Assembly: GCA_020073665.1 (NCBI GenBank)
Contig: JAIQEU010000005.1
Coordinates: 62,001 to 126,000 of the forward strand
Reading direction: 5' to 3'
DNA: 64,000 nt
Source: Terriglobia bacterium
GTDB taxonomy: Bacteria > Acidobacteriota > Terriglobia > Terriglobales > Acidobacteriaceae
The number at the start of each line of letters is the position of its first letter. Positions within the stretch are counted from its first letter, which is position 1. Positions 1,948 to 5,093 of this stretch are shown in pieces. The notes under the pieces are model-generated. The model saw nothing but the letters and a program-made list of their open reading frames with translations, searched no databases and had not been told where the DNA came from. A program made the translations under genes and the position numbers.

Positions 1948-2547
1948 ATGTCCAAATTTGCTGAGCCCATGACGCGGTTGATCGACGAGTTAAAGAAACT
2001 GCCGGGCATCGGCAGCAAGACTGCGCAACGGCTTGCCTTCCACATCCTGCGTTCCACCGACGACGATGCAGAAGCTTTGGCGGCGGCCGTGCGCGACGTT
2101 AAGGCCAGCCTGCGACTGTGCTCCATCTGCAACAACATTACCGACGTCGATCCCTGTGTCTACTGCAGCAGCCCCACCCGCAACCAGCGCCTGGTTTGCG
2201 TGGTGGAGGAGCCCACCAACATCGCCGCCATCGAACGGACCAAGCACTTCAACGGCAGCTACCACGTACTGCATGGCTCCATCTCGCCGCTGCACGGCGT
2301 GGGCCCGGAACAATTGCGGATTGCCAACCTGATGCGCCGCGTCGAAGGCGGCGAGGTGGACGAGGTCATCATCGCTACCAATCCCACCGTCGAAGGTGAG
2401 GCAACTGCGGTCTATCTCTCCGAGCACATCCGTCGCCCCGGGCTGAAAGTGACTCGTATCGCGATGGGAATCCCGGTGGGCAGTGACATCGAGTACGCCG
2501 ACGAAATCACCATGCTGAAGGCCATGGAAGGCCGCCGCGAACTATAG
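1948..2547 (+). CDS. recR: Recombination mediator protein RecR
   Basis: RecR works with RecF/RecO to load RecA at gaps in DNA. The 199-aa product has the family's usual length and domain order: N-terminal helix-hairpin-helix ([17 protein letters not shown]), a C4 zinc finger with Cys58, Cys61, Cys70 and Cys73, and a Toprim domain beginning at VCVVEEP. It ends the dnaX-ybaB-recR block. No strong Shine-Dalgarno sequence precedes the ATG. Confidence 0.97.
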
Positions 2548-2678
2548 CCACGGCGCCCCGGCCCGGCACTGGCTCAGTGCCAACCTGGTTTTGCAATTGT
2601 GCAAGAGTTTTCCACTATCCGCCAGGAAACCCCGCCACAACGCCGGCTCGGTCGAAGCTGACTTAATACGTCATTGCA

Positions 2679-2707
2679 TTATCAATCACTTACAAATATC
2701 TCATAAT
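2679..2707 (+). promoter_or_regulatory. Candidate sigma70-type promoter of the 2714-2930 RNA
   Basis: TTATCA at 2679-2684 (4/6 to the -35 consensus) and CATAAT at 2702-2707 (5/6 to the -10 consensus) are separated by exactly 17 bp, within an AT-rich stretch unlike its surroundings. Transcription would begin near 2714. No plus-strand protein gene follows; the next signal is the terminator at 2898-2923. Confidence 0.5.
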
Positions 2708-2713
2708 GTATCG

Positions 2714-2930
2714 GACGAGAGTCAGGATTGGCCCGGTGTTTGCAGTCATAGCAGGGTCTGTTTTCTCGCTCCTGATTTATTGACTGCGCGAGGATGCTCA
2801 CCGCAAACCGGTGACAGCCAAAACGGGCCGTAGACGCACCTTTCGCGCCAGTTTTGCGCCGTAGCTGCGATGTAACCGCATCCAACTCGACGCACCAAAA
2901 ACCGGGCCAACCAGCCCGGTTTTCTTATTT
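2714..2930 (+). ncRNA. Candidate structured small RNA between recR and the next gene
   Basis: About 215 nt bounded by a plausible promoter and an intrinsic terminator, with no credible ORF. Pairings seen: GCAGTCA 2742-2748 with TGACTGC 2781-2787; GGATGC 2792-2797 with GCATCC 2878-2883, enclosing a hairpin TCACCG/CGGTGA (2798-2803, 2809-2814); and a long-range 10-bp helix TTGGCCCGGT 2728-2737 with ACCGGGCCAA 2901-2910. The last helix competes with the terminator stem, a layout seen in riboswitches and autoregulated RNAs. It does not match SRP RNA, 6S, tmRNA or riboswitch cores that I know. It could instead be a long recR 3' region with fortuitous pairing. Confidence 0.4.
2898..2923 (+). terminator. 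Intrinsic terminator, probably bidirectional
   Basis: A 10-bp perfect stem AAAACCGGGC / GCCCGGTTTT (2898-2907, 2914-2923) with loop CAACCA, followed on the plus strand by CTTATTT. The symmetric A/T flanks mean it can also end transcription of the minus-strand gene that stops at 2977. Confidence 0.8.
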
Positions 2931-2976: not shown

Positions 2977-3537
2977 TTAGACCGCCGACGGGGTGGGCTT
3001 GTCATCCAGGAATGAGTTGGGTTCGTCTTCAGACGGAACGATTCCCTCCGGCCATGAACCCCGGTTGTATTCGAGCATGCGGTTCTTCCATTTGAGAAAT
3101 TCCGTAATGGTTTGGGGCTCGATGCGGATTTCGACGCGGCGCAAACTGGCCAACAACAGGTTCATCTCGTAACGGAATCCAACGTCAATGCGCAGGTTGC
3201 GGGCCGACGGACAAACCATTGCGATCCTGCGATTGTGGTATTCGAGCAGCCCCCAGCCTTTGGGCAATTCATCGATGCGAACCAGGGCCCGGGGTGTGAA
3301 GTAGAAGCGCTCGCAGCCCACGCCGGTTTCCGGCTTCCGGCGGAAAGGCTTGTCGCGGTCAGCCAGAAAGTCGGCCCGTGAGATCTTGCATTCCACCAGA
3401 ACGGAATGGCAAGCACCCTTCCATCCGATGGCATCGGGCATTTCGCCGCTACTCAAGGCTTGTTCGGAGAGGACGACTCCACAGCGGTAGGAGCGCAGCC
3501 ATATCACCGCTTTCGCAACCAGTTGAGCGTGAGTCAT
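2977..3537 (-). CDS. PD-(D/E)XK nuclease-like hypothetical protein
   Basis: 186-aa protein of unknown role. The sequence shows a PD-(D/E)XK-like core: Asp35 in MPDAIGW, then Glu49-x-Lys51 in LVECKISRADF, a pattern typical of small restriction/repair-type nucleases. Proteins with the ECKxSRxDF signature are common uncharacterised bacterial and phage-associated proteins. No methyltransferase or other restriction component is adjacent, so this is not evidently a restriction system. It stands alone, convergent with the candidate RNA and downstream of nothing obvious. The family assignment is by motif only. Confidence 0.7.
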   Translation of the reverse strand: MTHAQLVAKAVIWLRSYRCGVVLSEQALSSGEMPDAIGWKGACHSVLVECKISRADFLADRDKPFRRKPETGVGCERFYFTPRALVRIDELPKGWGLLEYHNRRIAMVCPSARNLRIDVGFRYEMNLLLASLRRVEIRIEPQTITEFLKWKNRMLEYNRGSWPEGIVPSEDEPNSFLDDKPTPSAV

Positions 3538-3588
3538 ACGATGATTGTTTTGTACTCGCAGACCAGAAAATAAGGAAGTGCCTGCCCG

Positions 3589-3614
3589 GCTACCAGCCCC
3601 TAACTACCAGCTAC
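3589..3614. repeat. AGCT-word spacer repeat
   Basis: Short iteration of CTACCAG-type words between two minus-strand genes. It runs into the 3' end of the CHAD gene and supplies its last codons (Val-Ala-Gly-Ser-stop). It belongs with the AGCT-word repeats at 8590, 14316, 16510, 16934, 20996 and 51076. Confidence 0.5.
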
Positions 3615-5093
3615 CCTCTTCACGATTCGCAGCGGTTTCACCATCACCGGACGGCGATACACCAGTTCGAGCAGGTGCCGCCCGCCAGCAATCTTTTTCG
3701 CCATTCGGTCCTGGGCAGAGTAGCCTTGTGCGGCAATCTCCAGCAGACCATTCTGATTGCGCACCTCCAACCGTCGAATGCGTCCGTCGCGGGTGGAGTC
3801 AAAAGCGTTCGCCAGGCGCAGAATAGCAGCCAGGCGCAACACCTGGGCTTTCTGGACAGCGGACCATTGGCTGAGTTTCTGATGGCGAAGCTGCGGAAAA
3901 GCTCCGCGATGGTAACGAGCAACAATCCCCACCATTTGCAGTTCTTCAGCGGTCCATCCCAGCGGTGGCTTCAGGCGGCTTATAAGGTCGCAGGATTTCT
4001 TATGGTGGCTCCTGTTTCCTTTTGATCTTCCGACATCGTGCATCAGCGCCGCCACCCGGAGGATCTCCCGCAGTCGTGGCGCTGCGCCTTCGGTTTGCAG
4101 CCCCGCACCGGCCAGTCGGTCAAAAAGCTGGATGGCAAGATCCGCCACTTGTGTGGAGTGCGCCGGGTCGGGATCGAGGAACGACGCCCATATTCGCAGT
4201 CGGCTTAACCCGGCCGCTTCGATCTGTTTGCCCTCGGGCAACGCCGCACGCCAGAGATTCCACAAAGACTGCTCGCCGACCATCTTTTGACGGTAGCGTG
4301 CGATTCGCTGGTGGCGCTCCTCTGTGATCCGGGCGCGCCACCGTGTGCGGGACTCCACGTCGGGAAATGCATTCAGTTGAACTGCTCTCACCCAGAGAAC
4401 ATCCAGATCGTGTACTTCCCCAAGCAGGTCCTGGAGTTGCTTCAGGTCGTCCTTCCAGAGTTGATGCAGTTCGGGCAGGAAATTCTCCACCGTGTAACGA
4501 AACCGTTTCAGGCCAATTCGTAAACGATGATAGGCCACCTGGCTTCGGCTGCGGAACGCCTGGCGATGCAGTTCACGGGCCTCGGTCCAGCGTTCCAGCG
4601 CCATGTGTTTGAACACGGCGCTTCCCACCCGGACGCGGGCTGCACGCCTGGGCAATTCCTCACACCACGAACTCCAGCGCTGGCGGTCGAACTCTTCGAG
4701 TGCCGTGAATGCCTTCCGCTTTAACTCCGGTTCGCGGAAGGCCGCATAGTTCACCAGTGTCCGGGCGACCGGATCATCGCTTGCGCCCAGGTGCTGTACT
4801 TCTTCCGTCATCACCTGCACGTCGCGCAACTCGCCCAGCGCCCTGAAAAGCGGTCTCCCGGCCCTCTTCATCGCCTTCCAATTCTTGTCGGGATCGATCA
4901 CCATCAAGCCATCCGCCATGGAGCGGCATCGACGCAGGGCGACGCGGAGATCGTGCACCGGGTCAGCGGCGAAGTCGAGGCGCACGCGGTCGCATTCTGC
5001 CAGCACGGCATGCATCCAGAAGGCTAGGCCCGCCCGGCGCTTAGGCTTGGGGTTTTGGTCAGGGGACGGTGGCGTCGGCAACATGATCTCCAA
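3600..5093 (-). CDS. CHAD domain protein with C-terminal HD domain
   Basis: 497 aa. CHAD domains bind polyphosphate through conserved histidines and basic residues. Here they appear as HDLRVALRRCRS (His47) and YHRLRIGLKRFRYTVE (His189) in an alpha-helical region of about residues 20-285. The C-terminal part (about 310-495) carries an HD-type phosphohydrolase pattern (His312; His352-Asp353 in AALMHDVGRSKG; later RYHRG) resembling the C-terminal domain of Ppx/GppA exopolyphosphatases. A fusion of polyphosphate binding with a Ppx-like HD domain suggests a role in polyphosphate metabolism; that role is inferred. No ppk gene is nearby. Confidence 0.85.
   Translation of the reverse strand: MEIMLPTPPSPDQNPKPKRRAGLAFWMHAVLAECDRVRLDFAADPVHDLRVALRRCRSMADGLMVIDPDKNWKAMKRAGRPLFRALGELRDVQVMTEEVQHLGASDDPVARTLVNYAAFREPELKRKAFTALEEFDRQRWSSWCEELPRRAARVRVGSAVFKHMALERWTEARELHRQAFRSRSQVAYHRLRIGLKRFRYTVENFLPELHQLWKDDLKQLQDLLGEVHDLDVLWVRAVQLNAFPDVESRTRWRARITEERHQRIARYRQKMVGEQSLWNLWRAALPEGKQIEAAGLSRLRIWASFLDPDPAHSTQVADLAIQLFDRLAGAGLQTEGAAPRLREILRVAALMHDVGRSKGNRSHHKKSCDLISRLKPPLGWTAEELQMVGIVARYHRGAFPQLRHQKLSQWSAVQKAQVLRLAAILRLANAFDSTRDGRIRRLEVRNQNGLLEIAAQGYSAQDRMAKKIAGGRHLLELVYRRPVMVKPLRIVKRVAGS

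What the first reader, a model, noticed from the sequence alone, without database searches (positions are those of the whole stretch)
2679..2930. Unannotated structured RNA candidate with competing terminator fold downstream of recR
A 17-bp-spaced promoter-like pair, a segment with at least four clear helices and an intrinsic terminator follow one another with no ORF between them. The 5' segment 2728-2737 is fully complementary to 2901-2910, which is also the 5' arm of the terminator. The RNA therefore has two mutually exclusive end states, as in riboswitches or antitermination leaders, but no gene follows on that strand. A trans-acting RNA or a recR-linked 3' RNA is possible.
Basis: seen in the sequence. 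Interest (0 to 1): 0.6.

Follow-up and report, generated by a model that had tools for sequence, protein, structure and literature searches.

The report
Sigma-54-driven small RNA beside recR

Summary
Segment 2728-2737 is part of a conserved sigma-54 promoter, TGGCccN5TTGC at 2729-2743, not part of the RNA. In 40 comparison loci plus the window (19 genera of one Terriglobales family, Acidobacteriota) this -24/-12 element recurs just upstream of a ~130-200 nt RNA with an intrinsic terminator. Upstream lie an IHF-like site and a TGTGCAA dyad centred ~149 bp (120-157) before the predicted start: the textbook order enhancer - IHF - sigma-54. The 10-nt complementarity to the terminator is essentially private to this genome (9 nt in one relative, near chance elsewhere), and the sigma-70-like pair is not conserved. 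Helices P1, P2, P3 and the terminator show compensatory changes. The RNA matches no Rfam family; 6S and SRP RNA lie elsewhere in the genome; there is no coding signal; the unit stays intact where other genes are inserted after recR. Best explanation: a stand-alone, bEBP/sigma-54-controlled trans-acting sRNA, probably base-pairing through its C/U-rich, anti-Shine-Dalgarno-like 5' tail (inferred). Activator, signal and targets are unknown; expression is untested.

The parts
2598..2615 (+). Enhancer-like dyad (UAS) for an unknown sigma-54 activator, consensus TGTGCAAnnnTTTGaaCa; here TGTGCAAGAGTTTTCCAC, with a degenerate right half
   Evidence: TGTGCAA in 32 of 41 homologs against at most 6 in shuffles; best match centred 120-157 bp (median 149) before the predicted start in all 41
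2680..2692 (+). IHF-like site TATCAATCACTTA (WATCAANNNNTTR)
   Evidence: 0-1 mismatches in 13 of 41 homologs against 4% of shuffles; 28 of 41 best matches 48-51 bp before the -24 element
2729..2743 (+). Sigma-54 -24/-12 promoter TGGCCC-GGTGT-TTGC
   Evidence: Present in 41 homologs and always the best site in a 120-nt stretch; rpoN in this genome and 55 of 61 genomes searched
2755..2927 (+). Predicted small RNA, start about 12 nt after the -12 GC, end in the terminator T-run
   Evidence: Alignment A2, fold z -2.74; start inferred from promoter spacing
2756..2780 (+). 5' tail GUCUGUUUUCUCGCUCCUGAUUUAU, C/U-rich, anti-Shine-Dalgarno-like; candidate target-pairing region
   Evidence: 2.65 CUCC/UCCU/CCUC tetramers in the first 38 nt against 1.00 shuffled; motif unpaired 0.60 against 0.39 for the whole RNA
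2783..2852 (+). P1, long stem 2783-2791 with 2843-2852, variable apical arm
   Evidence: Four pairs with changes on both sides in helix 2
2856..2893 (+). P2 (2856-2861 with 2888-2893) enclosing P3, hairpin 2869-2882 GAUGUAACCGCAUC with a near-invariant loop
   Evidence: Covariation in P2 and P3; basis of model R1
2898..2923 (+). Intrinsic terminator AAAACCGGGCCAACCAGCCCGGTTTT
   Evidence: Scan; conserved in all 40 aligned RNAs, four pairs with double changes
1948..2547 (+). recR, upstream neighbour, not part of the unit
   Evidence: ORF list; recR found upstream in most homolog loci

Best explanation
A stand-alone small regulatory RNA gene. Shown by comparative sequence: a conserved unit of enhancer-like dyad, IHF-like site, sigma-54 -24/-12 promoter, structured RNA of about 130-200 nt and intrinsic terminator. 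Inferred: an enhancer-binding protein bound at the dyad, helped by DNA bending, loops onto sigma-54 RNA polymerase and starts the RNA about 12 nt after the -12 GC when its signal is present. Inferred and weaker: the unpaired C/U-rich 5' tail pairs with mRNAs near their ribosome-binding sites, probably with Hfq, while P1-P3 and the terminator stabilise the RNA.
For: Sigma-54 site best-in-region in 41 of 41 homologs at a fixed place relative to the RNA; dyad at 120-157 bp; IHF-like site; rpoN present; covariation, 12 pairs with double changes against 5.6 +/- 1.5 in shuffles, 0/500, slides worse; no coding signal, longest ORF 19.5 aa against 19.3 shuffled; one strong copy in this genome; unit intact where genes are inserted after recR; a separately collected, named set (partly the same genomes) shows RNA and sigma-54 site together; Hfq in the genome.
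Against: No transcript data; start, sigma-54 dependence and IHF binding are inferred from sequence. The dyad's right half is weak here. Activator unidentified. A search for long complements of the 5' tail gave no convincing targets. One lineage (L053/L131) keeps the RNA without a recognisable sigma-54 site. The RNA is patchy in the family.
Confidence: 0.82

Rival explanations
1. Conditional terminator or riboswitch-like leader with two exclusive folds.
For: Exact 10-nt complementarity 2728-2737 with 2901-2910.
Against: The 5' segment is the conserved sigma-54 element, upstream of the predicted RNA; the pairing is 10 nt here, 9 nt in one relative and near chance otherwise; no gene follows on that strand, the next one is convergent.
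Confidence: 0.04
2. 3'-UTR-derived RNA processed from the recR transcript; the conserved block is mainly the operon's terminator region.
For: It follows recR in most homologs; the terminator could also serve the operon.
Against: Dedicated UAS-IHF-sigma54 promoter in between; recR 0.9-1.25 kb away with inserted genes in L133, L146, L149.
Confidence: 0.08
3. The RNA works by titrating a protein (as CsrB or GlmY do), through repeated AACC-bearing loops, rather than by mRNA pairing. It is a rival to the mode of action only, not to the sigma-54 sRNA identity.
For: AACC 2.00 per RNA outside the terminator against 0.56 expected; AACC or a near variant in the loops of P3, the terminator and often P1.
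Against: No known AACC-loop-binding protein; part of the excess is shared ancestry of the P3 loop; the terminator loop is common elsewhere in these genomes.
Confidence: 0.2
4. A known housekeeping RNA (6S or SRP RNA; the latter is often near dnaX-recR in other bacteria, from memory).
For: Position next to dnaX-recR; length.
Against: No Rfam match to either even in permissive mode; 6S (59.4 bits) and SRP RNA (69.8 bits) are elsewhere in this genome.
Confidence: 0.01

Closest known systems
GlmY/GlmZ sRNAs of Enterobacteriaceae (QseF/GlrR + IHF + sigma-54)
   Same: Similar size; sigma-54 promoter; activator assisted by IHF bound at a UAS of consensus TGTN12ACA (PMC6075780); the dyad here fits TGT-N12-ACA exactly in 7 of 41 homologs
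   Different: No Rfam match to GlmY or GlmZ; no overlapping sigma-70 promoter conserved; different phylum and neighbours; glmY lies beside qseEGF (PMC6075780), whereas here no activator gene was found next door; a RapZ partner was not tested
Qrr sRNAs of Vibrio (LuxO + sigma-54)
   Same: sRNA transcribed from a sigma-54 promoter by enhancer-binding proteins (PMC10162802, title and abstract only)
   Different: No Rfam match; single copy here; different enhancer motif (LuxO site recalled from memory, not tested)
Acidobacteria RNA families in Rfam (Acido-1, Acido-Lenti-1; names from memory)
   Same: Structured RNAs of the same phylum
   Different: No match even in permissive mode

Membership tests
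Sigma-54-dependent sRNA genes (a kind, not a homology family) | -24/-12 promoter upstream of the RNA | tested here: met
   41 of 41 homologs; rpoN present
Sigma-54-dependent sRNA genes (a kind, not a homology family) | Upstream activator site about 80-200 bp away | tested here: met
   TGTGCAA dyad 120-157 bp upstream in all 41; binding not tested
Sigma-54-dependent sRNA genes (a kind, not a homology family) | IHF site between enhancer and promoter | tested here: inconclusive
   Enriched and positioned, but degenerate in many homologs
Sigma-54-dependent sRNA genes (a kind, not a homology family) | Expression lost without rpoN | not testable with these tools
   Needs an experiment
GlmY/GlmZ or Qrr RNA families | Match to the Rfam covariance model | tested here: not met
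   cmscan, gathering and permissive thresholds
6S RNA | Match to RF00013 | tested here: not met
   The genome's 6S RNA is on contig C27
Bacterial SRP RNA | Match to RF00169 | tested here: not met
   The genome's SRP RNA is on contig C17
Riboswitch / antitermination leader | Conserved mutually exclusive helices | tested here: not met
Riboswitch / antitermination leader | Regulated gene downstream on the same strand | tested here: not met
   Next gene (2977-3537) is on the minus strand

The most novel reading that the evidence does not exclude
A multivalent RNA whose hairpin loops repeat AACC and that, under sigma-54 control, titrates an as yet unknown RNA-binding protein in Acidobacteriota: a Csr-like post-transcriptional switch with a new protein partner.
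Probability: 0.12. Interest if true: 0.75.

Novelty: new member of a known kind. Interest (0 to 1): 0.55.

Why it matters
No paper on sRNAs of this phylum turned up in the literature searches made here, and this RNA matches no Rfam family. It has a defined promoter, an enhancer motif and a covariance model, so its activator, signal and targets become directly testable. It also widens the known range of sigma-54/IHF-controlled sRNAs beyond the proteobacterial cases named above.

Tried and rejected
Rfam at both thresholds. 6S and SRP identity. Coding potential. Helical phasing of the enhancer distance: suggestive histogram, not significant on distinct distances, p = 0.16. Target search with the reverse complement of the 5' tail in 61 genomes: little above control, no consistent gene or start-codon placement; in this genome only the RNA itself. 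rpoN neighbourhood looked at for an obvious partner, by ORF list only, none seen. Model hits in one genus group (g51) and in G003, G114 and G159 turned out to be a different locus, the end of a small ORF, and were excluded from the homolog set. An RNAalifold run on the sequence-only alignment found only P3 and the terminator; P1 and P2 were tested as a named structure derived from single-sequence folds.

Full report
OBSERVATION. The letters are as described: 2728-2737 is the exact reverse complement of 2901-2910; a sigma-70-like pair TTATCA-17-CATAAT lies at 2679-2707 and an intrinsic terminator at 2898-2923; no ORF of 60 aa or more starts inside the RNA on its strand. The region folds better than shuffles (z -2.65). 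Rfam gives nothing at its gathering scores and only chance-level hits in permissive mode.

HOMOLOGS. A DNA search in 100 relatives gave matches in 17, all in the window's own family, and nearly all of the loci examined lie next to recR. A covariance model of the 3' hairpin module and terminator (R1) found about 45 strong hits in 300 family genomes; among 200 genomes drawn from the class, the only match outside the family was one weak hit. Titles in the named collection place the clade in Terriglobales, Acidobacteriota (Candidatus Sulfotelmatobacter, Acidobacteriaceae, Korobacter MAGs). There, 24 of the 80 species with the closest recR carry the RNA; this set overlaps the first in part. Weak hits (around 30 bits) are mostly unrelated terminators with the same loop.

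PROMOTER. It is the best sigma-54-like site in a 120-nt stretch in all 41 homologs (mean score 13.1 against 1.3 for the best site in shuffles; the sites were first picked by requiring GG and GC, so the per-locus comparison is somewhat favourable, but their place relative to the RNA was not imposed). rpoN is present in this genome and in 55 of 61 genomes searched. An IHF-like WATCAANNNNTTR site sits 48-51 bp further upstream in 28 of 41. Further up, the half-site TGTGCAA is present in 32 of 41, against at most 6 in shuffles; the best dyad TGTGCAAnnnTTTGaaCa is centred 120-157 bp before the predicted start, median 149. Enhancer, bend, sigma-54 is the standard architecture of bEBP-controlled promoters; glmY of E. 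coli has it, with a UAS consensus TGTN12ACA (PMC6075780), which the dyad here satisfies exactly in 7 of 41 homologs.

SWITCH HYPOTHESIS. The segment lies upstream of the predicted start (about 2755). Complementarity to the terminator is 10 nt here, 9 nt in one relative and near chance in the rest (mean 5.29 against 4.48). No gene follows on that strand. The sigma-70 pair is not conserved. Rejected.

RNA. From predicted start to terminator the RNA is 128-197 nt: a C/U-rich 5' tail, P1 (GCUGGC...GCCAGC, with a variable arm), P2/P3 with the hairpin GAUGUAACCGCAUC, and the terminator. On a sequence-only alignment (A2) the named structure has 12 pairs changed on both sides against 5.6 +/- 1.5 in shuffles (0/500), and sliding the partners destroys it. 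A C.A opposition inside P2 is kept in most sequences. One lineage (L055, L056, L082) has different letters in P2 and P3 but the same shape. There is no coding signal.

INDEPENDENCE. In L133, L146 and L149 the RNA is 0.9-1.25 kb from recR with other ORFs in the gap. In the named set, loci with the RNA usually have the sigma-54 site and loci without it do not. 6S and SRP RNA are elsewhere.

FUNCTION. Shown: conserved unit and RNA. Inferred: activation by an unknown bEBP. The 5' tail is enriched in anti-Shine-Dalgarno-like tetramers (2.65 against 1.00) and is less paired than the rest (0.60 against 0.39), and Hfq is present, so base-pairing with mRNAs is the leading mechanism; no target was identified. 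AACC recurs in the loops (2.00 against 0.56), so titration of a protein is not excluded. Other copies of the dyad in this genome lie upstream of sigma-54-like sites before a GAF-domain protein, a secreted beta-propeller-like protein, an NRPS-like protein and a protease-like protein (the last three named from sequence by eye), hinting at a wider regulon; unverified.

VERDICT. A real, new RNA family of a known kind (sigma-54/IHF-controlled sRNA).

Noticed in passing
L054, L057, L075-L079, L084-L086: The same hairpin GATGTAACCGCATC (or a close variant) plus a similar terminator lies right at the stop codon (GTG ATG TAA) of a conserved small ORF of about 75-85 aa without Pfam match (one member scanned). 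Its promoter region (GCAAC ... CGTGTCTAAT) looks like that of an ECF sigma factor. Why two unrelated loci share the hairpin is unexplained.
   Followed up: partly
L098, L099, L100, L101: Further copies of the TGTGCAAAnnTTTGCACA dyad in the window's genome lie 65-212 bp upstream of sigma-54-like sites, before a GAF-domain protein, a secreted beta-propeller-like protein, an NRPS-like protein and a subtilisin-like protein. 23 sites with up to 3 mismatches against 11 for the reversed pattern.
   Followed up: partly
window 2977-5093: Convergent neighbours are an MmcB-like protein and a CHAD + HD/Ppx-GppA-domain protein; both are conserved next to the RNA in many relatives.
   Followed up: no
L053 / L131: RNA kept but the sigma-54 site is not recognisable; perhaps promoter loss or rearrangement.
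   Followed up: no
genomes of the family: Terminators with the loop CCAACCAG on a GGCCCGGTTT-type stem are very common in this family, at unrelated loci.
   Followed up: no
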